A DNA stretch of 45,384 bases from Bordetella parapertussis (GTDB taxonomy: Bacteria; Pseudomonadota; Gammaproteobacteria; Burkholderiales; Burkholderiaceae_C), in the NCBI GenBank assembly GCA_945878355.1, contig CAMCTC010000035.1, positions 1 to 45,384 of the forward strand, in the 5' to 3' direction. Numbering within the stretch: position 1 is the first letter of the stretch; every line of letters starts with the position of its first letter. Of the stretch, positions 20,678-40,554 are shown piece by piece. The notes below the pieces were generated by a model. That model was not told the DNA's origin. It did not search any database and saw only the letters and a list, made by a program, of their open reading frames with translations. The position numbers were made by a program, and so were the translations under genes.

Positions 20678-20695
20678 TCTTCACACGCGTGTCAC
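20678..20695 (+). promoter_or_regulatory. Candidate PhoB box upstream of phoD
   Basis: TCTTCAC-ACGC-GTGTCAC: two heptamers spaced 11 bp, 43 bp before the phoD start. Its halves differ from those of the plcP box by one base each. Confidence 0.5.
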
Positions 20696-20738
20696 ATCAC
20701 CGCCGTGAAATCCGCTCATCCAAGGGAGTAGTCAAGAC

Positions 20739-22472
20739 ATGTCGACATCAATCAATCGCCGCAATTTCATGGTCACCGCGTCCACCGGCGCGGCGGTTCT
20801 GGGCAGCACGCTCGCCGGCTGCAGCGACGCCAGCGCTCGGCCAGCTGAATTCAAGTACGGCGTGGCGAGCGGGGACCCGCTGGCCAACCGGGTGATTCTC
20901 TGGACCCACGCCAAGATCGCCGACAGCATCGAACCGGTGGGCATAACCTGGCAGGTCGCAGGCGACAACGCGTTTGCAAGCATCGTCGGTTCGGGCCGGG
21001 TCGGTGCGACCGAGGCCACCGGTTTCACGGCCAAGGTCGATGCGTCCGGCTTGAGCGCGGGCACGACGTATTTCTACCGCTTCATCGACGACGCCGGCGT
21101 GGTCTCGCCCGTCGGCACCACCCGCACGTTGCCGGCGGCCAACACCGCATCGGTGAGCTTTGCGGTGTTCTCCTGCAGCCTGTACTCGGAAGGATTTTTC
21201 AACACCTACGACGCGGCATCGAAGTCCGATGCGCAGTTCGCCGTCCACCTGGGCGACTACCTCTACGAATACGGCGCCGATCCCAAGCAGTTCGGCAACA
21301 CCGACGCGGTCAAGCTGGGACGTGTCATCGCGCCAGCCCATGACATGGTCAGCCTGAGCGACTACCGCACGCGCTACGCGCTCTACCGGTCGGACACCAG
21401 CCTGCAGGCGCTGCACGCCAAGATGCCCTGGATCACGGTCTGGGACGACCATGAATTCGCCAACAACGCCTATGTCGGCGGCGCCGAGAACCACAACCCG
21501 GCGACCCAAGGTGACTGGATCACGCGCAAGAACATCGCTGCCCGGGTCTACCACGAGTGGATGCCGATCCGCACGCCCGACGCGGCCAACCTGCTCAAAA
21601 TCTACCGCAGCTTCGACTTCGGCAGCCTGTTCAGTCTGCACATGCTCGACACCCGGATCGAGGGGCGCGACCGCCAGTACGACAGCTATGGCGACGCCGA
21701 TGGGGGCCTGGCGCGCTACGGCACCGCGCTGGCCTCGGGCACCGACGCGAGCCACCGGATCATCAGCAGCGCCCAGCAGACCTGGCTGACCGACGGCCTG
21801 TCGAAGTCTGGCGCTGTCTGGCAGTTCCTGGGCAACCAGGACATCATGGCCAAGATGTGGTTCCCGGCCTCGGTGCTGCAAGTCGCGGCCACCGGTGGCG
21901 ATCCAACCCAGGTCGTCACCGACTACCTGACAGCCAAAGCCACCCGGGCTGCGGCAGGCGCGGGCGCGCTGACGCCCACCCAGACGGCGCTGCTGAACCC
22001 GGCGGTCAACCCCAGACTGCCTTACAACCTGGATTCCTGGGACGGTTACCCCAGCAGCCGCGAAGCCGTGCTGCAAACCGTCAAGGCCCAGGGCAAGAAA
22101 CTGGTCGCGTTGTCGGGCGATTCGCACAACGCCTGGTTCGCCAACCTGACCACGCTGGCCGGCGAGAAAGTCGGCGTTGAATTCGCCGGCTCATCGGTCA
22201 CCGCGCCGGGCTTCGAGAGCGCCGGCCTGGGCGGCCTGGCCAGCTCGATGGACGGCAGCGCGGTCGCCAAGGTGTCGGGCTCGGGCCTGGGCCTGGTCGA
22301 CGACCTGAACTACAGCGACAGCATCCGCCGCGGCTACCTGTTGATGACGGTCACTGCCGCCGCCGTCAAGGGCGACTTTGTCTTCGTCAGCACGGTCAAG
22401 TCGACCCAATACACCGCGGCCGTGGGCAAGTCGGTCACCGTCACGGCTTCGGGCGCGGTCAGCTACGCCTGA
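20739..22472 (+). CDS. phoD: Alkaline phosphatase PhoD
   Basis: 577-residue exported phosphatase/phosphodiesterase. The N-terminus NRRNFMVTA is a twin-arginine signal (Arg7-Arg8), ending in a possible lipobox (STLAGC, Cys28). Metal ligands of PhoD are visible: HLGDYLYEY (Asp173), WDDHEF (236-240), and GDSHNAWF (460-467); the C-terminal aspartate-rich end is complete. It releases phosphate from mono- and diesters in the periplasm. A candidate PhoB box and AAGGGAG ribosome site precede it. Its last 190 bp and 3' flank are duplicated at 23789-24153. Confidence 0.94.
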   Translation: MSTSINRRNFMVTASTGAAVLGSTLAGCSDASARPAEFKYGVASGDPLANRVILWTHAKIADSIEPVGITWQVAGDNAFASIVGSGRVGATEATGFTAKVDASGLSAGTTYFYRFIDDAGVVSPVGTTRTLPAANTASVSFAVFSCSLYSEGFFNTYDAASKSDAQFAVHLGDYLYEYGADPKQFGNTDAVKLGRVIAPAHDMVSLSDYRTRYALYRSDTSLQALHAKMPWITVWDDHEFANNAYVGGAENHNPATQGDWITRKNIAARVYHEWMPIRTPDAANLLKIYRSFDFGSLFSLHMLDTRIEGRDRQYDSYGDADGGLARYGTALASGTDASHRIISSAQQTWLTDGLSKSGAVWQFLGNQDIMAKMWFPASVLQVAATGGDPTQVVTDYLTAKATRAAAGAGALTPTQTALLNPAVNPRLPYNLDSWDGYPSSREAVLQTVKAQGKKLVALSGDSHNAWFANLTTLAGEKVGVEFAGSSVTAPGFESAGLGGLASSMDGSAVAKVSGSGLGLVDDLNYSDSIRRGYLLMTVTAAAVKGDFVFVSTVKSTQYTAAVGKSVTVTASGAVSYA

Positions 22473-22644
22473 GCGCCCCAAGGCCGGCCGAAGCCGGCCG
22501 CCCCCCGTGGGGATCAAGCAAAGTGGCAAAGCCACATTTGCTTGAGAGCCTGGCCGGTGCGGGTGGGTGCAGGTTGCCCTTGGAAGGCTTGCGTCACGCG
22601 GCTGCCATGGAACGGCCTCAGCATCGCGACTCCTGACTTCCAAG
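22282..22644. repeat. Direct repeat: phoD 3' end plus flank, copy 1
   Basis: 363 bp: the last 190 bp of phoD, the dispersed hairpin repeat and about 96 bp beyond. Matches 23789-24153 with roughly one difference in 20 and a small indel in a GCGGGT tract. This copy is fused to the intact phoD; its PhoB-like box (22591-22608) has CTGCCAT where the other copy has CTGTCAT. Confidence 0.92.
22473..22548. repeat. Dispersed two-hairpin repeat, copy 4
   Basis: Directly follows the phoD stop codon; both hairpins intact. Likely the phoD terminator. Confidence 0.85.
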
Positions 22645-22701
22645 GCCAGCCTATCCATCACCAGCCGGAGAATCACTCATCGGTTGAATGCGCTACGTCC
22701 T

Positions 22702-22926: not shown

Positions 22927-22977
22927 TTATCGGGTCATCAGCGATCAGCAGCTGCATGCGCCTTGCATCACATCAGC

Positions 22978-23648: not shown

Positions 23649-23666
23649 GGGGGATCTTCCAAATCT

Positions 23667-23679: not shown

Positions 23680-23979
23680 CGATTGTAGGCAGCGCGGCCC
23701 GGCTGGGGAAGTGCGCCCAGGCAGTGCGGTAGTCTTCCTCGCGCTCAGCCAGGCTGAACGGCGCGACGTATTGAATCGTTCTGCGGACCGGGCCTGGGCC
23801 TGGTCGACGACCTGAACTACAGCGACAGCATCCGCCGCGGCTATCTGCTGATGACGGTCACTGCCGCCGCCGTCAAGGGCGACTTTGTCTTCGTCAGCAC
23901 GGTCAAGTCGACCCACTACACCGCGGCCGTTGGCAAGTCGGTCACCGTCACCGCTTCGGGCGCGGTCAGCTACGCCTGA

Positions 23980-24055
23980 GCGCCCCAAGGCCGGCCGAAG
24001 CCGGCCACCCCCCGTGGGGATCAAGCAAAGTGGCAAAGCCACAGTTGCTTGAGAG
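23980..24055. repeat. Dispersed two-hairpin repeat, copy 5
   Basis: Part of the duplicated segment. The long hairpin has one mismatch (CACAGTTGCTTG). Confidence 0.85.
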
Positions 24056-24099
24056 CCTGGCCGGTGCGGGTGCGGGTGCGGGCTGCCCTTGGCAGGCTT

Positions 24100-24117
24100 G
24101 CGTCACGCGGCTGTCAT
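24100..24117 (+). promoter_or_regulatory. Candidate PhoB box upstream of the DUF3299-like/alkaline phosphatase operon
   Basis: GCGTCAC-GCGG-CTGTCAT. The second heptamer is the consensus; the first matches four of seven. It lies 50 bp before the start at 24168. Confidence 0.55.
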
Positions 24118-24167
24118 GGACCGGCCTCAGCATCGCAACTCGTGACTTCCAAGCCCAGACTGCCGAA

Positions 24168-24788
24168 ATGACCGCAACGTGGTACGACCCGAAGCCCCCA
24201 AAACCTGCCGAGGGGCGGTTCGGCCGGCTGACCACGATGGCCACGCTGGCCGCGATGGCCATGTCAGCGCTGCTGGCCTGTCCACTGGTGCTGGCGCATG
24301 GCGGGCAGGCCACGCTGGGTGCACCGCCCGCGCTGGCCGTGTCGGGCGTGCTGCCAGCACCGCCGGCAGGCGTGGCCGAACTGCGCTTCAGCGAGATGTT
24401 CCAGCGCCCGGTCGGCCCCAAGGGGCTGGAGCCCAGCGCGCGCTTGCTCGCGCTCGATGGCCTGACGGTGCGCCTGGTCGGTTACATGGCCAGCGCCGAA
24501 TTGCCAATGGCCGGACGGCTGGTCCTGTCGCCGCTGCCCATCGCCTTGAGCGACGAGGATGAGCCGCTGGCCGACGACCTGCCCGCGCAAGCCATCTTTG
24601 TCCACCTCAGTGGCCCGGCCGCAGCGCACACCCTGCCCAATTACAGCGGACTGATCCAGTTGCAAGGGCGGCTGTCGGTCGGCGCCCGCGACGAGCCCGA
24701 CGGCCACCTGTCGTCGGTGCGCTTGCTGCTCGACGAACAGGCTTCGCAGCAGTTGCTGCCGCCAGCGGCACCGCGTCGCCTGCGCTGA
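24168..24788 (+). CDS. Exported protein, DUF3299-like
   Basis: 206 residues. A hydrophobic stretch after a charged start (MATLAAMAMSALLACPLVLAHG, residues 24-45, shown as a signal) indicates export. The mature part has LLALDGLTVRLVGYMASAEL, which resembles the GKxVRIxGYMVPL core of DUF3299 proteins; function unknown. It is followed after 56 bp by the alkaline phosphatase and preceded by a candidate PhoB box, so the two are probably cotranscribed. The start methionine lies just beyond the duplicated segment; upstream in-frame codons run through the repeat and are unlikely to be translated. Confidence 0.55.
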   Translation: MTATWYDPKPPKPAEGRFGRLTTMATLAAMAMSALLACPLVLAHGGQATLGAPPALAVSGVLPAPPAGVAELRFSEMFQRPVGPKGLEPSARLLALDGLTVRLVGYMASAELPMAGRLVLSPLPIALSDEDEPLADDLPAQAIFVHLSGPAAAHTLPNYSGLIQLQGRLSVGARDEPDGHLSSVRLLLDEQASQQLLPPAAPRRLR

Positions 24789-24844
24789 GCCTGAGCAGTC
24801 CGACCCGGCAAGCCCCGCCTATCCATCCCCAGCCGGAGAGTGCT

Positions 24845-26899: not shown

Positions 26900-27793
26900 T
26901 CAGCGCGCTTCGGGCAGCGTCATCAAGGCCTGCCCCATGCGGATCGCCACCCCCGGGGCGATGCCGGCAGCCAGGCTGAAGCCGCGCGGCGCGAACACCA
27001 GGATGGTCGAGCCATGCTGGAACCAGCCCATCTCCTGGCCCTTGGCGAAGCGGGCGCCGCCAGGCAACTCGTTCGGCCCGCGGTAACGCAGGTGCAGCAA
27101 GGTGTCTAGCCAGTGCAGCCGGATGCAGGCCACCAGGATCGCCGCCACCGGCACCAGCGCAACGGGGTGGCCACCGCGCTCCAGCGTGGTGTGGATCACC
27201 GCGCGCTCGTTCTTGCAGAACAGCCGTTCGACGCGGGCCAGCGCGATCGGGTTGACGTTCCAGGTGTCGCCCGAGTGGTACGTGACATGCTGCACGCTGC
27301 AGTCCTGCGGCGCGTGGAAGCGGTGGTACATGCTCGAGGTCAGCCGCAGCGTGGCGTAGCAGCCGTCGCGGTAGACCTCGGCGGCCTCGGCCGCCCCCGC
27401 ACCGAACAGGTCGGTCAGCGTGTATGGGAAGCCCTTGGCCTGGAACACCTGGTCACCATCGACCGCGCCGCAGGCACCGACGATCGCATCGCAGGGGCTG
27501 GTCAAGCGCGTCGGGTCGGCATCGATCGGCCGGGCGCCAGGCTTCAACTCGCGGATGAAGCAGTCGTGCAGGCTGTCGAACTGTTGCTTCTTGGCGTCTG
27601 ACAGGTCGAGGTCGGCGAACAGCTTCCAGGCCGCGATCGAAGCCCGGCGCACCAGCGGTTGGCGGATCTGGCTGAACCAACCCATGAAGCGGGTGACGGC
27701 TGTGCGCGGCAGGCGGTTGGTCAGCAGAAAGTTCAGGTCCTCCTGCTGCAGCAGCAGGTCCCGAAATTGGCGCAAGGCGTGCTTGATTTTCAT
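26900..27793 (-). CDS. psd: Phosphatidylserine decarboxylase
   Basis: 297 residues. Psd makes phosphatidylethanolamine from phosphatidylserine at the inner membrane, and cleaves itself to create a pyruvoyl group. The cleavage motif is present as HGST (QEMGWFQHGSTILVFAP) in place of the common LGST; the catalytic histidines are in YHRFHAPQDC. The start is at MKIKHALRQF (27793), with no strong ribosome site. The first codons (ATGAAAA) coincide with half of a PhoB-like box pointing the other way. Divergent from the class III PLP enzyme with 65 bp between. Confidence 0.92.
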   Translation of the reverse strand: MKIKHALRQFRDLLLQQEDLNFLLTNRLPRTAVTRFMGWFSQIRQPLVRRASIAAWKLFADLDLSDAKKQQFDSLHDCFIRELKPGARPIDADPTRLTSPCDAIVGACGAVDGDQVFQAKGFPYTLTDLFGAGAAEAAEVYRDGCYATLRLTSSMYHRFHAPQDCSVQHVTYHSGDTWNVNPIALARVERLFCKNERAVIHTTLERGGHPVALVPVAAILVACIRLHWLDTLLHLRYRGPNELPGGARFAKGQEMGWFQHGSTILVFAPRGFSLAAGIAPGVAIRMGQALMTLPEAR

Positions 27794-27804
27794 GGTGTTG
27801 TCAA
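27787..27804 (+). promoter_or_regulatory. Candidate PhoB box between psd and the PLP enzyme
   Basis: TTTTCAT-GGTG-TTGTCAA, 54 bp before the rightward start at 27859 and overlapping the psd start codon. Five of seven matches in each half; part of the match is coding sequence of psd, so chance is possible. Confidence 0.35.
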
Positions 27805-27858
27805 AGTGCTCTGATAAACCTACGGCATCGAAACTTGAGACGCGCAGCGCGCGACGCG

Positions 27859-29508
27859 ATGAACCCCACATTTGCCCTGTCTGCCCTGGCGCTGGCCGCG
27901 TTGGCCGTGGTCTTGCCGGCCGCAAGGCGCCGGCTGCAACTCTCTGCTGCCAAGCACCCTTCGCTGACCGGCCATTCGCGGATGGCCAAGCGCGTGGCCG
28001 CGCAGGTGCCGGGCTACAGCTACGACGAGACCCGTTTCTTCAACTCGGACGGCGCGCCGGCCGATGTCGTGGCGCAGCGCCGCGTCGGCTTGCAGCAGCT
28101 GGCTGAACTGTTCCGCGAGCGCTTCCCGCGCTCGACCGCGCTCACCGCTGAGACCGCCGACGGCCTGTCGGACCTGCAGTTCACCGCCAGCTACCGCGTG
28201 CCCTTCCAGTACAGCCGCTACCTGCGCGAGCAGATCCGGATGCCGGCCTTCGTCGCCGGTTCCAGCGGCGTGCAAATGACCGACCTCGACGGCAACGACT
28301 TCCTCGACCTCACCGGCTCGTACGGCGTCAACGTGTTCGGCGTCGACTTCTACAAGCAGTGCATCGCCGAGGGCAGCGCGCGCGCCGCCGCGCTCGGCCC
28401 GGTGCTGGGCGCTTACCTGCCCTGCGTGGCCGACAACGTGAAGCGCTTGCGCGCGATCTCCGGGCTGGACGAGGTGTCTTTCCACATGAGCGGCACCGAG
28501 GCCGTGATGCAGGCGGTGCGGCTGTCGCGATACCACACCCGACGCAGCCACCTGGTGCGCTTCTGCGGCGCTTACCACGGCTGGTGGGACGACGTTCAGC
28601 CCGGCCCGGGCAATCCGGCCCGACCCGAGGCCACCTACACGCTCAAAGAGATGGATGAGGCCACGCTGCGCGTGCTGCGCAGCCGCAAGGACATCGCCTG
28701 CGTGCTGGTCAACCCGCTGCAGTCGCTGCACCCCAACCAGGGCGCGCCTGGCGATTCGTCGCTGATGACCAGCCGCCAGGGCGCGGGCTTCGACCGCGCC
28801 GCCTACACCGCCTGGCTGCAGCAACTGCGCCAGGTCTGCACCGAGCGCGGCATCGTGCTGATCTTCGACGAGGTGTTCATGGGTTTCCGCCTGGCGCCCG
28901 GCGGCGCGCAGGAATTCTTCGGCGTCAAGGCCGACCTGGTGACCTATGGCAAGACACTGGGCGGCGGCCTGCCGGTCGGCGTGGTCTGCGGCCGCAAGGA
29001 CTTGATGAAGCGCTTCCGCGAAGACCGCCCGGCCGACCTCTGCTTTGCCCGCGGCACCTTCAACGCCCACCCCTATGTGATGGCGGCGATGCAGGTCTTT
29101 CTCGAGCGCCTGGACAGCGCCGAGGTGCGCGCGATCTACGACGGCCAGGATGCGCGCTGGGACGCCCGCGCCGCGCGCTTCAACCAGCGCCTGGCCGACG
29201 CCGGCCTGCCGGTGCGGGTGGCGCACCTGCAATCGGTGTGGACGGTCTGCTACACCCAGCCCGGGCGCTACCACTGGCTGCTGCAGTACTACCTGCGGGC
29301 CCAAGGCCTGGCGCTGAGCTGGATAGGCACAGGCCGGCTGATCTTCAGCCTGAACTACAGCGACGCCGATTTCGAGACCGCGCTGCAGCGCTTCGTAGCC
29401 GCCGGCTGCGCGATGAAGGCCGACGGCTGGTGGTGGCAGGACGCCACGCTGACCGACAAATCGATCAAGCGCGGCATCCTGCGCGAGTTGCTGGCGCACC
29501 GGTTCTGA
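27859..29508 (+). CDS. Membrane-anchored class III aminotransferase/aminomutase-like PLP enzyme
   Basis: 549 residues. Residues 3-22 are a hydrophobic segment followed by RRR, a probable membrane anchor. The rest is a fold-type I class III enzyme: SGTEAVMQAVR (211-221), GAYHGWWDD (237-245), IFDEVFMGFR (335-344, Asp337) and the PLP lysine Lys365 in TYGKTLGGGLPVG. It resembles glutamate-1-semialdehyde aminomutases but is 120 residues longer and is not hemL. Start at MNPTFA; the upstream MRRAARDA codons are unlikely. It sits next to psd among lipid genes and may act on an amino headgroup or fatty-acid-derived amine; that is speculation. Confidence 0.85.
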   Translation: MNPTFALSALALAALAVVLPAARRRLQLSAAKHPSLTGHSRMAKRVAAQVPGYSYDETRFFNSDGAPADVVAQRRVGLQQLAELFRERFPRSTALTAETADGLSDLQFTASYRVPFQYSRYLREQIRMPAFVAGSSGVQMTDLDGNDFLDLTGSYGVNVFGVDFYKQCIAEGSARAAALGPVLGAYLPCVADNVKRLRAISGLDEVSFHMSGTEAVMQAVRLSRYHTRRSHLVRFCGAYHGWWDDVQPGPGNPARPEATYTLKEMDEATLRVLRSRKDIACVLVNPLQSLHPNQGAPGDSSLMTSRQGAGFDRAAYTAWLQQLRQVCTERGIVLIFDEVFMGFRLAPGGAQEFFGVKADLVTYGKTLGGGLPVGVVCGRKDLMKRFREDRPADLCFARGTFNAHPYVMAAMQVFLERLDSAEVRAIYDGQDARWDARAARFNQRLADAGLPVRVAHLQSVWTVCYTQPGRYHWLLQYYLRAQGLALSWIGTGRLIFSLNYSDADFETALQRFVAAGCAMKADGWWWQDATLTDKSIKRGILRELLAHRF

Positions 29509-30258: not shown

Positions 30259-30276
30259 GTGACGATGGGGTGACGG
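30259..30276 (-). promoter_or_regulatory. Candidate PhoB box facing the Mpo1-like gene
   Basis: On the minus strand CCGTCAC-CCCA-TCGTCAC, 87 bp before the start at 30171. Both halves keep GTCAC. Confidence 0.4.
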
Positions 30277-30303
30277 ATTCGTGTCTTTGCCGAGACAGTC
30301 GGT

Positions 30304-30321
30304 CCGTCATCAAGTTGTTGC
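30304..30321 (+). promoter_or_regulatory. Candidate PhoB box facing the GT4 gene
   Basis: CCGTCAT-CAAG-TTGTTGC. It matches the known E. coli phoA box (CTGTCATAAAGTTGTCAC) at 14 of 18 positions; the second half is weak. 28 bp before the start at 30350. Confidence 0.4.
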
Positions 30322-30349
30322 AGTCGCGAACGACGATGTGCGATTCCCA

Positions 30350-31615: not shown

Positions 31616-32813
31616 CCCAACCCAGCAAGCGCATCAGCGGCACGATCGGCAAATCTAGCGCCAGCAGCAAGGCATAGCCCGCCAGCATCAGCAGGATGCT
31701 GAGGTTCTCGTTGAAGTTTTGCACCGCGATCGAACGCCCAGCGCTCAGCAGCAGCTGACCGCGGTGCTGCAACAACGCGTTCATCGGCACCACCAGCAAG
31801 CCACCGACCGCGCCGATCAGCGCGAGCATCGGCAAGGCGGCGGCTCGGCTGGGCAGGCTCGCCGCCAGCGCGATGCCCAGACCCAGCACGATACCCGCCG
31901 GCAAGACCCGGCGCGCCTGGGCCAACGCGATGAAGCGCCCTGCCGTGGCAGCGCCGAACACCACGCCCACCGCCACGGCCGCCTGCAGCGTGGCCGCTTG
32001 CGACAGCGACAGCCCGAGCGCATCGACCGCCCAACGCAGCACCGCAAACTGCAACGTCGCGCCCACGCCCCAAAACAAGGTTGTCACCGCCAGCGACAAC
32101 CCGCCCAGCGGGTCGCGCCACAACAAGCGGTTCGCAGCGCCAAACTCCTTGAGCAACTGGGTCGGACGCCGGCTGGCGGCCGGGTAGCGTGCGCCGCTGT
32201 CGGGCAGACCGAGGTTGAGCAGTCCCGACAGCGCGTACACCGTCAACAGCAAGGCCAGCGCCGGCCACAGCGCGTGCGGCGGTGCGAGCCAAGCCATCGC
32301 CGAGGCCGCGAACAACTGCGCCGCGTCGCTGACCAGCAAGCCGCCCAGCACCGTGCCCAGCAGCACCGCGCCAACCACCGAGACCTCGATCCAGCCGTTG
32401 GCCGCGACCAGGCGCTGCGCAGGCACCAGTTCGGTGACCAGGCCGTACTTCGCCGGCGCATAGGCCGCAGCACCGCAGCCCAACAGGCCGAAGCACAGCA
32501 AGGGATTCAGCCCGGCCATCAGCCCCAGCAGCGCGATCGCTTTCAAGCCATTGGTCCAGGCCATCAGCCTGGCCTTGGGCACCGCGTCGGCCAGCGGCCC
32601 GACCCAGGGCGCGAGCAGCACATAGGACAGCGTCGACGAGAACTTGAGCATCGGCGCGAGCCAGCCTGGCAAGCCACGGGCCTGCAGCAGCGCGATGGTC
32701 ACGATCAGCAAGGCGTTGTCGGCCAATGCCGAGCAGAACTGCGCGGCGATCAAGCGGTAAAAACCGCGCGGCATCGGCCCGACGGTGGCGGTGGGAGCGG
32801 GCGCTTTGGACAT
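31506..32813 (-). CDS. lplT: LplT-like lysophospholipid transporter (MFS)
   Basis: 435 residues, twelve membrane segments. FYRLIAAQFCSALADNALLI and YAPAKYGLVTELVPAQRLVAANGW are signature blocks of LplT, which flips lysophospholipids into the cytoplasm for re-acylation. The acyltransferase Aas, often next to or fused with LplT, is not in the window. The C-terminal tail (PVPAAAPEPDAARPQPAR) is encoded in the overlap with the GT4 gene. Start at MSKAPAP (32813); the longer frame is a basic, unconserved leader. Divergent from plcP, so both may respond to the same regulatory site. Confidence 0.88.
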   Translation of the reverse strand: MSKAPAPTATVGPMPRGFYRLIAAQFCSALADNALLIVTIALLQARGLPGWLAPMLKFSSTLSYVLLAPWVGPLADAVPKARLMAWTNGLKAIALLGLMAGLNPLLCFGLLGCGAAAYAPAKYGLVTELVPAQRLVAANGWIEVSVVGAVLLGTVLGGLLVSDAAQLFAASAMAWLAPPHALWPALALLLTVYALSGLLNLGLPDSGARYPAASRRPTQLLKEFGAANRLLWRDPLGGLSLAVTTLFWGVGATLQFAVLRWAVDALGLSLSQAATLQAAVAVGVVFGAATAGRFIALAQARRVLPAGIVLGLGIALAASLPSRAAALPMLALIGAVGGLLVVPMNALLQHRGQLLLSAGRSIAVQNFNENLSILLMLAGYALLLALDLPIVPLMRLLGWVTATLVLLLVLRQRLMPRPVPAAAPEPDAARPQPAR

Positions 32814-32872
32814 TGCCAGCGATGCTCGCAGGCTTGTGCAACGGTTTGGTGACGGCACGTCGCAAATAGCAG

Positions 32873-32890
32873 TTTTCACGCTGCTGTCAC
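32873..32890 (+). promoter_or_regulatory. Candidate PhoB box upstream of plcP
   Basis: TTTTCAC-GCTG-CTGTCAC. The first half resembles the TTTTCAT half of the E. coli phoB box, the second matches consensus at six of seven. 24 bp before the plcP start, 60 bp from the divergent lplT start. Confidence 0.55.
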
Positions 32891-32914: not shown

Positions 32915-33814
32915 ATGCCGAACGACGACATGAGCGATGACCAGGCCGAACTGGACGACACGATGCGATTTCGCACCGTCTGGATCTCCGACCTTCACCT
33001 GGGCACACCGGGCTGCCAGGCAAGAGCGTTGCTCGACTTTCTCAAACGAGTCGAGTGCGACACGCTGTACCTGGTCGGCGACATCATCGACGGCTGGCAA
33101 CTGCGCCGTACCTGGTACTGGCCGCAGGCCCACAACGACGTGCTGCAGAAAATTCTGCGCAAAGCCCGCAAAGGCACCCGCGTGGTGTTCGTGCCCGGCA
33201 ACCACGACGAGTTCGCACGCCGCTATGTCGAGCATGTTTTCGGCGGGGTCGAGGTCGTCGAAGACGCGGTGCATGTCACCGCCGACGGCCGCAAGCTGTG
33301 GATCACCCACGGCGACTTGTTCGACGGCGTGATCCAGTGCGCCAAATGGCTGGCCTACCTCGGCGACTCGGCCTACGGCGTGACGCTCAAGCTCAACCAG
33401 TGGTTCAACAGCGCGCGGGCGCGACTCGGCCTGCCGTACTGGAGCTTGTCGAGCTACCTCAAGCTCAAGGTCAAACGCGCGGTGAGTTATGTCAGCGACT
33501 TCGAGGTCGCCGTCGCCCGCGAAGCGCGCAAGCGCGGCATGCAAGGCGTTGTTTGCGGCCACATCCATCACGCCGAGATGCGCGAGATCGACGGTGTGCT
33601 GTACTGCAACGACGGCGACTGGGTCGAGAGCCTGACCGCGCTGGTCGAACACGCCGACGGCAGGCTGGAGATCGCGGACTGGTCGGCACACCGCTCGCTG
33701 GCAGCCTTGGGCGCTCGCGCGCCGGCCAAAGGCCTGCGGCCAGCAGCCACCCCAGAGCTGGGCGCTGCGATGCGGGGAAACAGCGCGATCGAGCGCCCGG
33801 CCAGCCTGGTTTGA
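32915..33814 (+). CDS. plcP: Metallophosphoesterase, PlcP-like phospholipase C (LpxH/COG2908 family)
   Basis: 299-residue calcineurin-like phosphoesterase. Metal motifs: SDLHLG (about 25-30), VGDIIDGW (54-61), PGNHDEF (94-100), THGDLFD (about 130) and GHIHHAEM (about 213). Automatic annotation would call it UDP-2,3-diacylglucosamine hydrolase, but the WYWPQAHNDVLQKILRKARK block and the length match PlcP of Sinorhizobium, the phosphate-starvation phospholipase that removes phosphate headgroups and yields diacylglycerol. The nearby lipid glycosyltransferase supports this. First gene of an operon with the TatT/TatP/TRAP genes (13 bp, 25 bp and 3 bp gaps). Confidence 0.78.
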   Translation: MPNDDMSDDQAELDDTMRFRTVWISDLHLGTPGCQARALLDFLKRVECDTLYLVGDIIDGWQLRRTWYWPQAHNDVLQKILRKARKGTRVVFVPGNHDEFARRYVEHVFGGVEVVEDAVHVTADGRKLWITHGDLFDGVIQCAKWLAYLGDSAYGVTLKLNQWFNSARARLGLPYWSLSSYLKLKVKRAVSYVSDFEVAVAREARKRGMQGVVCGHIHHAEMREIDGVLYCNDGDWVESLTALVEHADGRLEIADWSAHRSLAALGARAPAKGLRPAATPELGAAMRGNSAIERPASLV

Positions 33815-33827
33815 CGCCGCGAACCCC

Positions 33828-34763
33828 ATGATGAGACTCGGGCTTGGCAACCGCGCCCGCAGATCCTGGTCATCGGCATGGTCATCGATCTGGCCATCGA
33901 TTTGGCGGACGGCCGCAGTGACCGCAATCACCGGGCTGTGCGCTTGTTCGCCGCAGTCGCTGCTGTTGCGCGCAGCAGCCGACCAGTTGGCCGGCCAGGG
34001 CCAGGCCGACGAAGAAGACCTCTTACTGGCGCGTGACGCCAGTGCTTTCTACCTCAAGCTGTCCGAATCGGTGCTGCGCCAGACACCGGGCCACCTGCCG
34101 CTGGCCGAGGCCGTTGCCGGTGGCTTCACGCAGTACGCCTACGCTTTCATAGCGTTAGAAGCTGATCGCATTGAATCGACCGATGCCAAGGCGGCCCGGC
34201 GCATGCGCGAGCGTGCGGCCCGTCTGTATGCGCGCGCAAAGCGCCATGCGATGGCCGCGCTCGAGCAGCACCGGCCGGGATTCGCCGAGGCCTTGGCTGG
34301 CAAGGCCACGGCGCTGCAATTGCCAGCCGACCAGGTGGCGGTGGCTTATTGGGCGGCGGCGGCCTGGGGCGCTCACATCTCGCTGTCCAAGGACCAGCCC
34401 GACGCCGTGGCCGATCTGCCGCAGGCGATCGCGCTCGCGCGGCTGGCTTGGGCGCGCGACCCCGACCATGGCGACGGCGCGCTGGCCAGCTTGATGGGCA
34501 GCTTCGAGGCGGCGCGACCGGGCGGATCGATGCGCCAAGCCGAGACCTACTTCAACCGCGCGATCGCTGCCGGCGCAGGCCGCAGCGCTGGGCCCTGGGT
34601 CGCCAAGGCCGAGACGCTGGCCTTGGCTGCGGGCGACCGCGTCGGCTTCGAAGCGATGTTGCGTCAAGCGATCAGCATCGCCACCGGCCACCCAAGCTTG
34701 GCCAACGCGCTGATGCGCGAGCGCGCGCAATGGCTGCTGGACAGCGCCGACGACCGGTTCTGA
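33828..34763 (+). CDS. TatT-type TRAP-associated lipoprotein
   Basis: 311 residues. A signal with lipobox-like ITGLCAC (about residues 34-41) indicates a periplasmic lipoprotein. The helical remainder, with LAEAVAGGFTQYAYAF, RLYARAKRHAMAAL and GSMRQAETYFNRAIAAG, matches the TatT (TPR-like) family. In Treponema, TatT forms a trimer that binds the substrate-binding protein TatP in tetratricopeptide repeat-protein-associated TRAP transporters (TPATs), thought to carry hydrophobic ligands. The next two genes supply TatP and the permease. Start ATG-ATG at 33828; no clear ribosome site. Confidence 0.82.
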   Translation: MMRLGLGNRARRSWSSAWSSIWPSIWRTAAVTAITGLCACSPQSLLLRAAADQLAGQGQADEEDLLLARDASAFYLKLSESVLRQTPGHLPLAEAVAGGFTQYAYAFIALEADRIESTDAKAARRMRERAARLYARAKRHAMAALEQHRPGFAEALAGKATALQLPADQVAVAYWAAAAWGAHISLSKDQPDAVADLPQAIALARLAWARDPDHGDGALASLMGSFEAARPGGSMRQAETYFNRAIAAGAGRSAGPWVAKAETLALAAGDRVGFEAMLRQAISIATGHPSLANALMRERAQWLLDSADDRF

Positions 34764-34788
34764 ATTCCAACGACTTGACCCTGCCCCC

Positions 34789-35802
34789 ATGAACCGCTTG
34801 AGACTATTTGCCACCTTGCTCTGCCTCGCGCTCGCGCTGCCGCTGGCCAGCCATGCCGCCACCGGCGCCCTCAGGATCGCCAGCCTGGTGCCCAAGAACT
34901 CGCTCTACCACCAGCAACTGCTGGAACTGGGCGAGGCCTGGCGCACCGCCCAGGGCGGGGGCGCCAAGTTCGTCGTCTTCACCGATGGCAGCCAGGGCGG
35001 CGAGGCGGAACTGGCGCGCCGAATGCGCATCGGCCAGTTGCAGGGCGCGCTGTTGTCAGTGGTCGGGCTGCGCGAGATCGAGCCGTCGATCAGCGCGCTG
35101 CAAAGCCTGCCGTTGCTGTTCAAGAGCTGGGACGAAGTGGACTATGTGCGCGAGAAGATGCGCCCGGCGATGGAGAAGAAGTTTCTCGACAAGGGCTTCG
35201 TCGTGCTCGGCTGGGGCGACGCCGGCTGGGTGCGCTTCTTCTCGAAGACGGCCGCCTTCAGGCCCGACGACTTCAAGGGCAAGAAGTTCTTCGCCTGGGG
35301 CTCGGAGCCGGAGCAGCAAGCCATCATGAAGAGCCTGGGCTACACCCCAGTGCCGCTGGAGACAGCCGACATCCTGCCGGCGATCCAGACCGGCATGATC
35401 AGCGTGGTGCCGTCGACGCCTTACTTCGCGCTGGCCAGCCAGATCTACGAGACCGCGCCCCACATGCTGGAGATCAACTGGGCGCCCATCGTCGGCGCGC
35501 TGGTCGTCACCCGCAAGGCCTGGGACGAGATGGCGCCGGCGGCACAGACCACGCTGCGCGCGGCCGGCGAGAAGGCCGGCACCGCGATGCGCGGCCAGGC
35601 CCGCAAGGAAGTGGACGAAGCGGTGGCGGCGATGAAAAAGCGCGGCCTGGTCGTCAACCGCCCCACGCCCGAGCAGCTGCGCGAGTGGCAAGACCTGGCC
35701 GACAAGCTCTACCCGCGCATCCGCGGCACGATGGTGCCGGCCGAGACCTTCGACGAGGTGTTCAGCCACCTCAAGGCCTACCGCGCCAGCAAGGGCTTGT
35801 AG
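34789..35802 (+). CDS. TRAP transporter substrate-binding protein (TatP/DctP)
   Basis: 337 residues with a Sec signal (residues 1-23, cut after SHA). DctP-fold blocks: LRIASLVPKNSLYHQQLLEL, EAELARRMRIGQLQGALLS, and WGDAGWVRFFSK followed by FKGKKFFAW. The arginine that salt-bridges carboxylates in DctP proteins usually sits near the last block; here WVRFFSKT has one. Part of the plcP operon; ligand unknown. The pairing with TatT suggests a hydrophobic or amphipathic anion. Confidence 0.88.
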   Translation: MNRLRLFATLLCLALALPLASHAATGALRIASLVPKNSLYHQQLLELGEAWRTAQGGGAKFVVFTDGSQGGEAELARRMRIGQLQGALLSVVGLREIEPSISALQSLPLLFKSWDEVDYVREKMRPAMEKKFLDKGFVVLGWGDAGWVRFFSKTAAFRPDDFKGKKFFAWGSEPEQQAIMKSLGYTPVPLETADILPAIQTGMISVVPSTPYFALASQIYETAPHMLEINWAPIVGALVVTRKAWDEMAPAAQTTLRAAGEKAGTAMRGQARKEVDEAVAAMKKRGLVVNRPTPEQLREWQDLADKLYPRIRGTMVPAETFDEVFSHLKAYRASKGL

Positions 35803-35805
35803 GCG

Positions 35806-37653
35806 ATGGCGATGCGCCTGACCACGAGGCTGAAAACCCTGGGCCAGCTGGACTCGGGGCTGGGCGGCCTGGCGCTGGCGCTGATGGTGCTGATCCCGCT
35901 GCTCGAGGTGGCGCTGCGACCGCTGCTGGGCCGGGGCGTGGACAACGCGTCGGTGCTGGTGCAACACCTCGGCCTGGTGTTGGCGATGGCCGGCGCGCTG
36001 GCGGCCGAGCGCAGCGGCGAGCTCTCGACGCTGGGCAGCAGCCTGGGGCGGTTGGGTGGTGCGCGCGTCCAGGCCGCTGTGCAGGCTTTCGCCAAGGGCA
36101 GCGCCGCGCTGGTCTGCGGCCTGCTCGCGCTGGCCAGCTGGCGTTTCGTGGCCAGCGAGATCAGCGCCGCGCAACCGCTGGCCTACGGCGTGCCGGTCTG
36201 GTGGGTGCAGGCGGTGATGCCGCTGGGTTTCGGGCTGCTGGGCGTCAAGCTGGGCGCGCGCTGCGCCGCCCAGCCCTGGGCGCGGGCGGCTTGCGCCATC
36301 GCGCTGCCGCTGGCCGGCTGGATGCTGGGGTCGGTCTTCGACGGCCAGGCCGTGCCGCTGGGGCTGCTGCTGCCGGTGCTGCTGGCCGCGCTGCTGGCTG
36401 GTTCACCGGTCTTTGCCGTGCTGGGCGGGCTGGCGCTGGCGCTGTTCTGGCAGGACGCGCTGCCGCTGGCGTCGGTGGCGCTGTCGCACTACTCGATCAC
36501 CGTCAACCCGTCGCTGCCGGCCTTGCCGCTGTTCACGCTGGCCGGCCTGGTCTTCGCCCGCACCGGCGCCGCGCAACGGCTGAGCCTGCTCTTGCTGGCC
36601 TTGTTCGGCGGCGCGGTGCGCGGCACGGTGCTGGCCACCGCGCTGCTGTGCTCGGCCTTCACGGCGCTGACCGGCGGCAGTGGCGTGACCATCCTGGCGC
36701 TGGGCGGCCTGCTGCTGCCGATGCTGGGCCGGGCGGGTTACCCCGAGCAGCGCGGCATCGGCCTGGTGACCAGCGCCAGCGCGCTGGGCGTGCTGCTGGC
36801 GCCATCGGTGCCGCTGATCATGGTCGCGGTGATCGCCCGCGTGCCCATCCAGGACATGTTGCTGGCCGGCTTGCTGCCGGCCGGCGTGATGGTGGTCTGC
36901 CTGCTGGTCTTCGGCGGCTTTCTGAAGCGCGCCGACATCGTTCCGGCCAACGCCGCGCCAGCCACACCGCAGGCCGGGCGCGCGCTGGCCGGGGTGGGCG
37001 CGGCGGCATGGCGGGCCAAGTGGGAAATCCTGGCGCCCGTGCTGGCCGTGGGCGCGCTGGTCAGCGGCCTGGCCACGCCCACCGAGAGCGCGGCGCTGAC
37101 CGCTGCCTATGCGGTGGCCACCCAGGCCGGGGCCCACCGCGAGCTGGGCTGGCGCCTGCTGGGCAAATGCCTGGGCGACTGCGCGCGGCTGATAGGCGGC
37201 GTGATGCTGATCCTGGGCATGGCGCTGGCACTGACCAACTTTCTGGTCGACGCCGGCATTCCGGATGCCGCGATCGATGCGGTGCGCTCGGCCGTGCCGA
37301 ACAAGTTCGTCTTCCTGCTTGGGCTGTGCCTGTTCCTGTGCGCGGCGGCCGCGCTGATGGAGATCTTCGCGGCCATCGTCGTGCTGGTGCCGCTGCTGCT
37401 GCCGCTGGCCCGCAGCTACGGCATGGACCCGCTGCATTTCGGCATCGTCTTCCTGGCCGCGATGGAGCTGGGCTTCCTCTGCCCGCCGGCCGGCATGAAC
37501 CTGTACTTCGCGTCGGCGATGTTCGGCAAGTCGATAGGCTATGTCGCCCGGTCGGTGCTGCCGGCGCTGCTGGCCATCTTCATCGGCACGCTGCTGATCG
37601 CCGCGCTGCCGCTGTTGGCCACCGGCTTGCCGGCGCTGTTGTTGCGGCGATAA
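35806..37653 (+). CDS. Fused DctQM TRAP permease
   Basis: 615 residues. Residues 1-170 form the four-helix small subunit (DctQ-like), the rest the large DctM subunit with about twelve segments; GGSGVTILALGGLLLPML and TPTESAALTAAYAV are family blocks, and the end LGFLCPPAGMNLYFASAMF is strongly conserved. A Q-M fusion is common in TRAP systems. It imports the TatP ligand with sodium or protons. The start is three bases after the tatP stop. Last gene of the plcP operon; the convergent OlsB-like gene ends 14 bp away. Confidence 0.9.
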   Translation: MAMRLTTRLKTLGQLDSGLGGLALALMVLIPLLEVALRPLLGRGVDNASVLVQHLGLVLAMAGALAAERSGELSTLGSSLGRLGGARVQAAVQAFAKGSAALVCGLLALASWRFVASEISAAQPLAYGVPVWWVQAVMPLGFGLLGVKLGARCAAQPWARAACAIALPLAGWMLGSVFDGQAVPLGLLLPVLLAALLAGSPVFAVLGGLALALFWQDALPLASVALSHYSITVNPSLPALPLFTLAGLVFARTGAAQRLSLLLLALFGGAVRGTVLATALLCSAFTALTGGSGVTILALGGLLLPMLGRAGYPEQRGIGLVTSASALGVLLAPSVPLIMVAVIARVPIQDMLLAGLLPAGVMVVCLLVFGGFLKRADIVPANAAPATPQAGRALAGVGAAAWRAKWEILAPVLAVGALVSGLATPTESAALTAAYAVATQAGAHRELGWRLLGKCLGDCARLIGGVMLILGMALALTNFLVDAGIPDAAIDAVRSAVPNKFVFLLGLCLFLCAAAALMEIFAAIVVLVPLLLPLARSYGMDPLHFGIVFLAAMELGFLCPPAGMNLYFASAMFGKSIGYVARSVLPALLAIFIGTLLIAALPLLATGLPALLLRR

Positions 37654-37667
37654 CCGGCGGGCTGGTC

Positions 37668-38489
37668 TCAGGCGCGGATGAAGCGCCGACGGTAAGACGC
37701 GGGCAGGTCGGCCAGGTCCAGCATCATCGGCAGGTCGGCGGTGCCGAAGTCGGGGTCCCAGGCCGGGGCGCCAAGCAATTTGCCGCCGCATTTCAGATAA
37801 CCCTTGATCAGCGCAGGGGGTTCAGCCTGCAGATCGCCGCCCAAGTCGTCCACCGGCAAAGCCAGACGCGGCTGCACCTGCAACTCGGGCGCGACCAGAT
37901 AGCTCTGGCGCAGGCCGTGCCAGACACTGGCGGCATGGTGTCCGCCGTCGCGCATCGGCACACTGGCGCAGCCCAGCGTGATGTCGAGCCGGTTGCGCAG
38001 CATGAACTCGGCCAGCGCCGACCACAGCATCAACACCAGACCACCGGAACGCCAGTCAGCGGCGATGCAGGTGCGGCCCATCTCGACCATCCGAGGCCGC
38101 AGCGCGTCCAGCCGCGACAGGTCGAACTCGCTGTCGATGTACAGGCCGCCGATCCGGCGTGCCGACGCCGGCGTCAGAACGCGGTAGGTGGCCACAACCT
38201 GTGCCGGCGCATCGGCTGTCTCGACAGTGCGCACCAGCAGATGTTCGCAACAGGCGTCGAAGGCGTCGACATCAAGACCGGCGGCAGTGCCCGCGGGCGG
38301 CGTCAGGCGCGCACCCATCTCGTCGGCGAAGACCCGGAAGCGCAGTCGCTGGGCTTCGCGGACCTCGTCCTCGTGCACGGCCCAGACGGCCTCCAGCCGC
38401 GGCACGGGTGCGGTATGGACAAGACCTTGCGAGAAGGATCCGCCAGCGCCGAAATCCCCGGCCTGACGCAGATTTTGCGAAGGGTTCAT
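37668..38489 (-). CDS. olsB: OlsB-like L-ornithine N-acyltransferase
   Basis: 273 residues from ATG 38489 (38513 also possible). GNAT-type fold of the OlsB/hemolysin family: EVREAQRLRFRVFADEMGARL, DVDAFDACCEHLLV, VATYRVLTP, and GLYIDSEFDLSRL then VEMGRTCIAADWRSGGLV. OlsB transfers a 3-hydroxyacyl group from ACP to ornithine, the first step of ornithine lipid synthesis. OlsA, the second acyltransferase, is not in the window. I prefer the inner start because a PhoB-like box overlaps the outer one. Confidence 0.82.
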   Translation of the reverse strand: MNPSQNLRQAGDFGAGGSFSQGLVHTAPVPRLEAVWAVHEDEVREAQRLRFRVFADEMGARLTPPAGTAAGLDVDAFDACCEHLLVRTVETADAPAQVVATYRVLTPASARRIGGLYIDSEFDLSRLDALRPRMVEMGRTCIAADWRSGGLVLMLWSALAEFMLRNRLDITLGCASVPMRDGGHHAASVWHGLRQSYLVAPELQVQPRLALPVDDLGGDLQAEPPALIKGYLKCGGKLLGAPAWDPDFGTADLPMMLDLADLPASYRRRFIRA

Positions 38490-38511
38490 GCCGCTATCGT
38501 CGCGTCCGTTC

Positions 38512-38529
38512 ATGACGCTTGGATGAAGT
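38512..38529 (-). promoter_or_regulatory. Candidate PhoB box upstream of olsB
   Basis: Minus strand ACTTCAT-CCAA-GCGTCAT, 22 bp before the start at 38489. Four and five of seven matches; weak on its own. Confidence 0.35.
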
Positions 38530-38731
38530 CGGCGTGTCAAAAACATGACGTCGGCAGCGGAACCCATCGACGCCGACAGCAGCGTCGTGGTGTTCTCATC
38601 TTTGAGCCAACGCAAGCAGCTGCGACAAGGATGCCGGATGCAAGGCTGCTGCGATGCGTTGATCGATTCCGGAACGGAGAATTGATGTATATTGTATAAA
38701 CCATTTACCTCGTTCTTGAAAGGATCCTGCC

Positions 38732-39337: not shown

Positions 39338-39368
39338 ATCTGCCGCCTCCGCGCTGGCCGCGAAGCGC

Positions 39369-40514
39369 CTAAACAGCGGCGGCATCAGCACGGCGGTCGA
39401 GGATGCCAGCCAGGATGTCGGGCACCTCGAAAACAGCCCGGTTCTCGATCTGGGCAACACGCTGCTTGAACTCGTCCAGCCGGCGCAGCATCTCGAGCAC
39501 GGCCGGGCGAAGCTTGCGCATCGAGCGCACCACCAGGCCCAGGCCGTTGTGCTGCACCCAGTCGGTGTTGTAGCGCTCCTGAGGCATGGTCCAGGTGTTG
39601 CGAACCGTCAGCACCGGTAGTCCTTGTTGCACGGCCTCGCTCAAGCTGCCCGGGCCGGGTTTGCCGATCAGGAAGTCACCCAAGGCCAAGTGACGCCGCA
39701 CCTCTGGTGTGAACTCCACCACCAAATGCGCTGCGGTCGGCCGCAGCGCGCGCAACCGGCGCGCCAACTCGCGGTGGTGTCCGCACATCAGCACGAGTTG
39801 CACGTCGGCAAGGTCACGCGCAATCGCCAGCATCGCCATCGAGCCCTGGCCGCCGAACATCACCACACCGGTGGGCCGGTCGGGGTCCAGACCGAGCCGG
39901 ACCCGATCGGCCCGACGGTCCAACGCCAAGGGCTGGTAGAAATCAGGCCGAATGACCATGCCCGAACTGCGGTGCACTCGCGACGCATCGTGGCCTAGCG
40001 CCAAGGCCTGCGCCTCGGCCTTGGCACTGCCGCAGATGAAGTGCTGGGCCTGGCCCGGCTCGATCCAGAAGTTGGGCGGATGGTCGGCCAGGTCGGTGAG
40101 CAGGGTCACGAAGGGCGCACCCGGCCTGGCGGCGGCCAGCGCGCTGAACATCGCGCGGTTGAAGTTGGGGATCAGTGAGACGACCAGATCGGGCGCGCTG
40201 CGCGACCAATGGCGCTGCAGCCGCCGTACCAACGTGGCGTGGCCGAGCGCGATCATGGCTTGCAACAGCTTGAGCTCTTGCGCCAGCCCCAGCGTCCAGC
40301 CGCGCGCCAGCCGCAGGTTGTAGAGGTCTTCGGGTGCGATGCCGGTGAGGCGACGAAACCTCGCTTGCGGGTCCAGCAGGTCGACCAGGTTGATGCAGCG
40401 AAGTTGCCAGGGACGCTGCTGCTGCACGATCACCGCCTGCAAGGCGGTCGCTGCGGCCCGGTGGCCGCCGCCAGCGTTGAAGTAGATCAGGTCTAGGGTG
40501 GTGAGTGGCTGCAC
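39369..40514 (-). CDS. MGDG-synthase/MurG-like lipid glycosyltransferase (GT28)
   Basis: 381 residues from a GTG start at 40514; ATG 40616 would add 34 residues without conservation and leave only 27 bp to the divergent gene. DLIYFNAGGGHRAAATALQ is the N-terminal glycine-histidine loop of diacylglycerol galactosyltransferases; VSLIPNFNRAMFSAL and LLTDLADHPPNFW follow; GKPGPGSLSEAVQQGLPVL and NTDWVQHNGLG are the donor-binding C-domain blocks. It should transfer a sugar to diacylglycerol or a similar lipid. A PhoB-like box lies 22 bp upstream of the GTG. Confidence 0.8.
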   Translation of the reverse strand: MQPLTTLDLIYFNAGGGHRAAATALQAVIVQQQRPWQLRCINLVDLLDPQARFRRLTGIAPEDLYNLRLARGWTLGLAQELKLLQAMIALGHATLVRRLQRHWSRSAPDLVVSLIPNFNRAMFSALAAARPGAPFVTLLTDLADHPPNFWIEPGQAQHFICGSAKAEAQALALGHDASRVHRSSGMVIRPDFYQPLALDRRADRVRLGLDPDRPTGVVMFGGQGSMAMLAIARDLADVQLVLMCGHHRELARRLRALRPTAAHLVVEFTPEVRRHLALGDFLIGKPGPGSLSEAVQQGLPVLTVRNTWTMPQERYNTDWVQHNGLGLVVRSMRKLRPAVLEMLRRLDEFKQRVAQIENRAVFEVPDILAGILDRRADAAAV

Positions 40515-40536
40515 CTGCCCATGGTCGCTGCAGCGC

Positions 40537-40554
40537 GTGACGCTCCTGTGACCC
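40537..40554 (-). promoter_or_regulatory. Candidate PhoB box upstream of the GT28 gene
   Basis: Minus strand GGGTCAC-AGGA-GCGTCAC: a GTCAC direct repeat with the 11-bp period. It supports the GTG start at 40514. Confidence 0.45.

What the first reader, a model, noticed from the sequence alone, without database searches (positions are those of the whole stretch)
20678..40554. A candidate Pho-regulated membrane-lipid remodelling island
Within 20 kb the window encodes two unrelated alkaline phosphatases (PhoD, PhoA superfamily), Psd, a PlcP-like phospholipase C, two different lipid glycosyltransferases (GT4 and GT28), an OlsB-like acyltransferase, an LplT-like lysolipid transporter and a TPAT transporter. 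Established: PlcP plus Agt-type glycosyltransferases and ornithine lipids replace phospholipids in phosphate-starved bacteria. Seen: seven sites with two CTGTCAT-like heptamers at 11-bp period in front of these transcription units. Inference: one regulon that swaps phospholipids for glycolipids and ornithine lipids. I know of no description of all these parts in one locus.
Basis: partly seen in the sequence, partly recalled or inferred. Interest (0 to 1): 0.85.

Follow-up and report, generated by a model that had tools for sequence, protein, structure and literature searches.

The report
Phosphate-starvation lipid island, uncharacterised enzyme trio
This stretch of DNA from a Burkholderiales bacterium gathers genes that probably rebuild the cell membrane when phosphate runs out, and at its heart sits a widely conserved three-gene unit of unknown chemistry that may add or process a nitrogen group on membrane lipids.

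Summary
A motif learned from relatives alone ranks the OlsB, Mpo1/GT4, PhoA and PhoD sites 1, 2, 4 and 7 of 45,356 positions; the AT3, PlcP and GT28 sites are weak in this window (ranks 32, 33, 20), and a plain E. coli-type consensus shows no excess. Psd-AT3-Mpo1 keep order and orientation in 57 of 69 AT3 loci. AT3 co-occurs with PlcP (31 of 34 AT3 genomes against 117 of 266 without), often nearby. Elsewhere it lies beside betaine-lipid, OlsF-like, PmtA-like or ceramide genes. Nine genomes carry a GT4 with an extra N-terminal domain; the eight of them searched lack PlcP. PhoD, PhoA and the TRAP transporter are local extras. Best reading: a PhoB-controlled switch to glyco- and aminolipids, a new variant of a known kind, with an uncharacterised AT3-Psd-Mpo1 arm. 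Boldest reading not excluded: a phosphorus-free amine headgroup made by transamination and decarboxylation. There are no expression or lipid data.

The parts
20678..20706 (+). Pho-box-like tandem (11-bp period) before PhoD
   Evidence: learned matrix 13.6 bits; rank 7 of 45,356
20739..22472 (+). PhoD alkaline phosphatase
   Evidence: PF09423 3.6e-93; local addition, 3 of 80 PlcP loci
24089..24117 (+). Pho-box-like tandem before hyp24-PhoA
   Evidence: 16.6 bits; rank 4; lies in a duplicated stretch
24030..24788 (+). hyp24, hypothetical protein before PhoA; true start uncertain
   Evidence: no Pfam match; a 44% relative next to PhoA also in L159
24845..26875 (+). PhoA-superfamily alkaline phosphatase
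   Evidence: PF00245 2e-70
26900..27793 (-). Psd, long-form phosphatidylserine decarboxylase
   Evidence: PF02666 1.7e-52; TIGR00163 155 bits, cut-off 111.75; solved Psd 4e-31; invariant G261-S262-T263 in 77 relatives
27787..27815 (+). Pho-box-like tandem shared by Psd and AT3
   Evidence: 15.5 bits, but rank 32 when AT3 upstreams are left out of training; tandem conserved upstream of AT3 in 20 relatives
27859..29508 (+). AT3, class-III aminotransferase with a hydrophobic N-terminal segment
   Evidence: PF00202 8.4e-30; MycA aminotransferase domain 2.6e-47 against GSAM 2.5e-37, profile 4.7e-58 against 6.7e-44; K365 conserved in at least 97% of 83 relatives
29551..30171 (-). Mpo1-like (DUF962) membrane protein, putative Fe-dependent dioxygenase
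   Evidence: PF06127 20.7 bits, cut-off 24; relative in L168 26.2, above the cut-off; H16, H20, H29, H66, E70 conserved
30259..30287 (-). Pho-box-like tandem shared by Mpo1 and GT4
   Evidence: 19.4 bits; rank 2
30281..31615 (+). GT4 lipid-type glycosyltransferase; true start uncertain
   Evidence: PF13439 and PF13692; NCBIfam best GlcN-PG synthase 134.7 bits (cut-off 480), then monoglucosyl-DAG synthase 103.2 (cut-off 400)
31506..32813 (-). LplT lysophospholipid transporter
   Evidence: NF008397 470.6 bits, cut-off 297
32862..32890 (+). Pho-box-like tandem before PlcP
   Evidence: 12.3 bits; rank 33 with PlcP upstreams left out; enriched upstream of 79 PlcP relatives
32915..33814 (+). PlcP-like metallophosphoesterase
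   Evidence: PF00149 1.7e-13; closest curated family LpxH, far below cut-off; metal-ligand motifs conserved in 79 relatives
33828..37653 (+). TPAT-TRAP transporter (TAtT, DctP, DctQM); local addition
   Evidence: PF16811, PF03480, PF04290 and PF06808; DctP and TAtT in 1 of 80 PlcP loci
37668..38486 (-). OlsB-like N-acyltransferase
   Evidence: PF13444 3.7e-30; within 2.5 kb of PlcP in 23 of 80 loci
38512..38540 (-). Pho-box-like tandem before OlsB
   Evidence: 22.5 bits, best in the window; rank 1 with OlsB upstreams left out
39369..40499 (-). GT28-like diacylglycerol glycosyltransferase; true start uncertain
   Evidence: MGD1 2.2e-20 and processive DAG glucosyltransferase 2.1e-10; PF04101 below cut-off; within 2.5 kb of PlcP in 15 of 80 loci
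40537..40565 (-). weak Pho-box-like tandem before GT28
   Evidence: 9.9 bits, rank 20
43501..43529 (-). possible further Pho-box-like site before the phytase-like gene at 43562+
   Evidence: 12.7 bits, rank 9

Best explanation
A PhoB-controlled membrane-remodelling island. Under phosphate starvation PlcP would strip the phosphate headgroup from phospholipids, GT4 and GT28 would glycosylate the diacylglycerol left behind (to glucosyl- or glucuronosyl-lipids), and the OlsB-like enzyme would start an aminolipid. The evolutionarily constant core is a three-gene unit, a second Psd, the membrane-anchored aminotransferase AT3 and the Mpo1-like membrane protein, which belongs to the same response and acts on a lipid or lipid precursor; I think it most likely that it makes or processes an amine-bearing lipid component. 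Shown by computation: gene content, synteny, conservation of the tandem sites, co-occurrence with PlcP. Inferred: PhoB binding, induction, the substrates and the products.
For: Tandem sites upstream of relatives' AT3 (n=20), Mpo1 (18), PlcP (79), OlsB (23): p 2.9e-11, 7.6e-13, 4.0e-19, 8.1e-9 against mononucleotide shuffles. Spacing 11 is the highest of 7-16 in all four sets (AT3 9.07 against 7.07 shuffled). The same spacing stands out in 31 AT3 loci of the later samples, AT3 identity 48-67% (9.26 against 7.53; other spacings 7.76-8.27). Held-out matrix ranks. Psd upstream and divergent, Mpo1 downstream and convergent in 57 of 69 AT3 loci. AT3 and PlcP in 300 genomes of the order: both 31, AT3 only 3, PlcP only 117, neither 149, Fisher p 7e-8; on one contig within 15 kb in 21 of the 31. 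Psd copies: two in 13 of 13 AT3-bearing genomes from the PlcP loci, against one in 9 and two in 3 of 12 without AT3. Neighbours elsewhere: BtaA (DUF3419) with a methyltransferase and PlcP in L159, OlsF-like in L164, PmtA-like methyltransferase in 9 of 20 extended loci, serine palmitoyltransferase above its cut-off in Sphingomonas, UDP-glucose dehydrogenase relatives in 8 of 80 PlcP loci.
Against: A plain E. coli-type consensus shows no excess in the window. The AT3/Psd and PlcP sites rank only 32 and 33 when their own orthologues are left out. 114 of the 148 PlcP-bearing genomes... see counts: 117 PlcP genomes lack AT3, so AT3 is dispensable for PlcP remodelling, and 3 AT3 genomes lack PlcP. 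The co-occurrence test is not corrected for kinship, and the shuffles keep neither dinucleotides nor kinship. Spacing 13 is also raised for Mpo1 (8.58) and OlsB (8.13). Seven or so of the 31 loci score near the shuffled mean. No expression, binding or lipid data; no whole genome of the window is held.
Confidence: 0.7

Rival explanations
1. Acyl-chain amination: AT3 transaminates a 3-keto (or aldehyde) fatty acyl intermediate, as the MycA aminotransferase domain does, giving an amino fatty acid built into a membrane lipid; Mpo1 trims or oxidises the chain.
For: The closest solved relative by sequence and by profile is the MycA aminotransferase domain; beta-transaminases also match; Mpo1-family enzymes are fatty-acid alpha-oxidases (Pfam description; mechanism recalled).
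Against: Does not explain the dedicated Psd; identity to MycA is remote; class-III families change substrates easily.
Confidence: 0.2
2. Phospholipid turnover: the second Psd turns phosphatidylserine into PE, a better substrate for PlcP, and AT3 and Mpo1 process released headgroup or acyl fragments, so the unit recycles rather than builds.
For: Psd has the family's conserved self-processing motif and matches solved Psd; LplT and a lysophospholipase L2-like protein in L161 are turnover genes.
Against: AT3, Psd and Mpo1 persist in genomes without PlcP; the closest AT3 relatives are not phosphoethanolamine lyases (none among the 60 and 32 chains listed).
Confidence: 0.22
3. AT3 is an ordinary glutamate-1-semialdehyde aminomutase (HemL) or amino-acid transaminase that lies here by chance.
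For: Databases name its relatives glutamate-1-semialdehyde 2,1-aminomutase.
Against: 174.9 bits against a HemL cut-off of 527.3; 57 of 69 loci with the same neighbours; hydrophobic N-terminus and a conserved segment after it.
Confidence: 0.04
4. The sites are chance matches and the genes are simply neighbours without common control.
For: No excess with the plain consensus; weak ranks for AT3, PlcP and GT28.
Against: Spacing-specific enrichment in relatives and ranks 1, 2, 4 and 7 for four promoters.
Confidence: 0.06

Closest known systems
PlcP-Agt lipid remodelling (marine heterotrophs, Pseudomonas aeruginosa, Methylosinus; PMC4796936 section 13 and passages, PMC8528852 and PMC9239053 passages)
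   Same: PlcP-like phosphoesterase with GT4-type lipid glycosyltransferase and Pho boxes; PlcP with a second type of DAG glycosyltransferase is also described in some methanotrophs.
   Different: Here a Psd-AT3-Mpo1 unit, LplT, GT28 and OlsB lie in the same locus; 'aminotransferase' and 'decarboxylase' do not occur in the main text of PMC9239053, nor 'aminotransferase' or 'decarboxylase' in PMC4796936.
Mycosubtilin synthase MycA aminotransferase domain / GSAM-type class-III aminotransferases
   Same: Closest solved relatives of AT3, PLP lysine region conserved.
   Different: Stand-alone, with a hydrophobic N-terminal segment and about 110 extra N-terminal residues, in a membrane-lipid locus rather than in an NRPS.
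Ornithine-lipid synthesis (OlsBA, OlsF)
   Same: OlsB-like Acetyltransf_5 protein with the strongest Pho-box-like site of the window; OlsF-like protein near AT3 in L164.
   Different: NCBIfam OlsB score below cut-off; no OlsA found among the ORFs scanned.
Glycosphingolipid response of Caulobacter (PMC6445935, passages only)
   Same: Phosphate-starved switch to glyco- and nitrogen-bearing lipids; in Sphingomonas the AT3 unit lies next to a serine palmitoyltransferase.
   Different: No AT3, Psd or DUF962 is mentioned in its main text (search terms).

Membership tests
PlcP-type phospholipase C | calcineurin-like metal-binding motifs | tested here: met
   D26, H28, D56, N96, H97, H132, H216, H218 conserved in at least 97% of 79 relatives; PF00149
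PlcP-type phospholipase C | not LpxH | tested here: inconclusive
   best NCBIfam match LpxH 46.2 bits, cut-off 134; no PlcP model or solved PlcP to score against
PlcP-type phospholipase C | hydrolyses phospholipids to DAG | not testable with these tools
   needs an assay
Agt-type GT4 lipid glycosyltransferase | GT4 domains and closeness to lipid GTs | tested here: inconclusive
   GT4 domains met; best NCBIfam matches are lipid GTs but far below cut-off; no solved chain at E 1e-15
LplT | curated NCBIfam cut-off | tested here: met
   470.6 against 297 bits
OlsB | curated NCBIfam cut-off | tested here: not met
   142.8 against 350 and 132.8 against 320 bits; called OlsB-like only
Phosphatidylserine decarboxylase | family score and GST self-processing motif | tested here: met
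   TIGR00163 155.2 against 111.75; G261 S262 T263 conserved; motif meaning recalled
HemL / glutamate-1-semialdehyde aminomutase | curated cut-off | tested here: not met
   174.9 against 527.3
Class-III aminotransferase | PF00202 and PLP lysine | tested here: met
   8.4e-30; K365 in the DEV..GFR...TYGKTLGGG context shared with MycA and GSAM
Mpo1 (DUF962) dioxygenase | Pfam PF06127 cut-off | tested here: inconclusive
   window 20.7 against 24 (not met), L185 20.6, L168 26.2 (met)
Mpo1 (DUF962) dioxygenase | alpha-oxidation of 2-hydroxy fatty acids | not testable with these tools
Pho regulon | tandem half-sites at 11-bp period upstream | tested here: met
   strong for four window promoters, weak for three
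Pho regulon | PhoB-dependent induction | not testable with these tools
   no expression data

The most novel reading that the evidence does not exclude
The unit builds a phosphorus-free amine headgroup, a stand-in for phosphatidylethanolamine (and, where a PmtA-like methyltransferase joins, for phosphatidylcholine): AT3 turns a lipid-linked keto acid into an amino acid, the second Psd decarboxylates it to an amine, the methyltransferase methylates it. The keto-acid lipid and the part of Mpo1 are unknown. A side reading: in the lineage whose GT4 carries an extra N-terminal domain with PHP-like motifs (seen by eye, no Pfam match), that domain replaces PlcP.
Probability: 0.15. Interest if true: 0.9.

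Novelty: new variant of a known kind. Interest (0 to 1): 0.6.

Why it matters
Replacement of phospholipids under phosphate stress shapes how bacteria live in poor waters and soils. The known parts explain glycolipids, ornithine lipids and betaine lipids. A Pho-box-bearing Psd-AT3-Mpo1 unit found in 25 of 398 sampled genomes of the phylum (AT3 count) points to a lipid step that the annotation 'glutamate-1-semialdehyde aminomutase' has hidden, and a single deletion with lipidomics would test it.

Tried and rejected
Rejected: plain E. coli Pho-box scan as the test (no excess). AT3 as HemL (score far below cut-off). TRAP transporter, PhoD and PhoA as core members. PHP identity of the extra N-terminal domain of the GT4 fusion as an established fact: no Pfam match at E 10 apart from two weak YhiY matches and no meaningful solved relative (best E 0.31). 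Led nowhere: Rfam and tRNA scans (nothing); PADLOC on the PIN protein (nothing) and on the ATPase at 10740 (weak mads_8); PDB search with the Mpo1 profile (one chain at E 0.82) and with GT4 (none at 1e-15). Ten literature searches listed no paper that by title or abstract describes the Psd-AT3-Mpo1 unit; the library holds open-licence PubMed Central papers only, and only the listed rows were seen.
Full report
What is there. The window (67% GC) comes from a Burkholderiales bacterium, judged by PlcP relatives at 77-83% identity in Aquincola, Ideonella, Pelomonas and Rubrivivax records; no whole genome of it is held. Two more lie between Psd and GT4: AT3, a class-III aminotransferase with a hydrophobic N-terminal segment, and an Mpo1-like membrane protein.

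Pho boxes. A plain consensus scan of the window gives no excess. In relatives the 130 bp before AT3 (n=20), Mpo1 (18), PlcP (79) and OlsB (23) hold tandem half-sites well above mononucleotide shuffles (p 2.9e-11, 7.6e-13, 4.0e-19, 8.1e-9); GT28 (n=16, p 1.9e-4), GT4 (17, 1.2e-3), Psd (20, 3.9e-3) and LplT (12, 3.9e-3) less so, and the Ala-rich protein (1) not. Of spacings 7 to 16, 11 scores highest in all four sets; 13 is somewhat raised for Mpo1 and OlsB. In 31 AT3 loci from the class, phylum and order samples (five of them from the order sample), spacing 11 again stands out (9.26 against 7.53 shuffled; other spacings 7.76 to 8.27), though several loci score at the shuffled level and some loci are close kin.

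The conserved unit. In the 80 PlcP loci (the 80 best of 589 matches; only 49 have 9.5 kb on both sides) 19 hold AT3, and 18 of these hold Psd, AT3 and Mpo1 together. GT28 lies within 2.5 kb of PlcP in 15 and OlsB in 23 of 80; DctP and TAtT in 1, PhoD in 3, PhoA in 0. AT3 was found in 13 of 35 genomes behind PlcP loci (35 of the 80 loci given), 9 of 274 of the class, 25 of 398 of the phylum and 34 of 300 of the order. In the 69 loci L081-L149, Psd is upstream and divergent and Mpo1 downstream and convergent in 57; in 9 neither lies within the 1.5 kb held; in 2 only Mpo1; in 1 (L100) a 28% Mpo1 match on the same strand.

The nine exceptions carry, right after AT3, a GT4 with an extra N-terminal domain. 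Four were read further (L158, L160, L163, L165): AT3, this GT, Psd and Mpo1 on one strand. Eight of the nine genomes were searched for PlcP and none had it at E 1e-25; in all, 14 of 24 AT3 genomes of that call had PlcP, and the other two without it are G820 and G940. The N-terminal domain shows HxH, PHP and GSDDH stretches like a PHP phosphoesterase (by eye, recalled), but Pfam does not recognise it.

Links. In 300 genomes of the order AT3 and PlcP occur together in 31, AT3 alone in 3 (G808, G820, G940), PlcP alone in 117, neither in 149 (Fisher p 7e-8, kinship not corrected); in 21 of the 31 they lie within 15 kb on one contig. Thus most PlcP genomes do without AT3. All 13 AT3 genomes have two Psd genes; of 12 of the 22 AT3-free genomes of that call, 9 have one and 3 have two; of 17 other AT3 genomes 16 have two or more matches (some weak) and G126 one. 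Elsewhere AT3 lies beside a PlcP, a methyltransferase and BtaA-family DUF3419 (L159), an OlsF-like protein (386.6 bits, cut-off 620; L164), a methyltransferase whose best match is PmtA, far below its cut-off (cluster in 9 of 20 extended loci), and in Sphingomonas parapaucimobilis a serine palmitoyltransferase above its cut-off with an acyl carrier protein. UDP-glucose dehydrogenase relatives (Pfam-checked in L008) occur in 8 of 80 PlcP loci.

AT3, Psd, Mpo1. AT3's closest solved relative is the MycA aminotransferase domain, by sequence and by profile, ahead of GSAM; it is far below the HemL cut-off. K365 and many active-site positions are conserved in 83 relatives; Psd keeps G261-S262-T263 in 77; Mpo1 keeps H16, H20, H29, H66 and E70 in 73. 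The Mpo1 model is all-helical (pLDDT 86.5); no fold search could be run, and AT3 could not be modelled. The Mpo1 Pfam score is below cut-off in the window and above it in L168.

Mechanism. I take the island to be a PhoB-controlled switch from phospholipids to glycolipids and aminolipids, with the Psd-AT3-Mpo1 unit as an uncharacterised lipid arm. Which reaction it performs is open: acyl-chain amination, turnover, or a phosphorus-free amine headgroup. The order AT3, Psd and, in some lineages, a PmtA-like methyltransferase fits keto acid, amino acid, amine, methylated amine; this is inference.

Literature. Read: PMC4796936 section 13 and passages; passages only of PMC9239053, PMC12226003, PMC6445935 and PMC8528852. 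Everything else was seen as search listings.

Noticed in passing
22282-22652 and 23789-24161: A direct duplication (284 nt at 98% plus 88 nt at 90%) flanks a Phd/PIN toxin-antitoxin pair (22978-23648-): the 3' end of PhoD and the Pho-box stretch before hyp24 are doubled, as if the pair had been inserted between PhoD and PhoA.
   Followed up: partly
   Followed up: partly
L158:10344-13049: GT4 fused to an N-terminal domain with PHP-like motifs that Pfam does not recognise, in 9 AT3 genomes; the 8 searched lack PlcP.
   Followed up: partly
L185:11024-25581: On a Sphingomonas parapaucimobilis plasmid the AT3 unit and a PmtA-like methyltransferase lie next to a serine palmitoyltransferase, an acyl carrier protein, LptF and LptG.
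   Followed up: partly
L159:5463-15309: PlcP, methyltransferase, BtaA-family DUF3419, divergent AT3, GT4, PhoA and hyp24 in one locus without a nearby Psd.
   Followed up: no
9976-10410: A second PIN-domain protein in the window.
   Followed up: no
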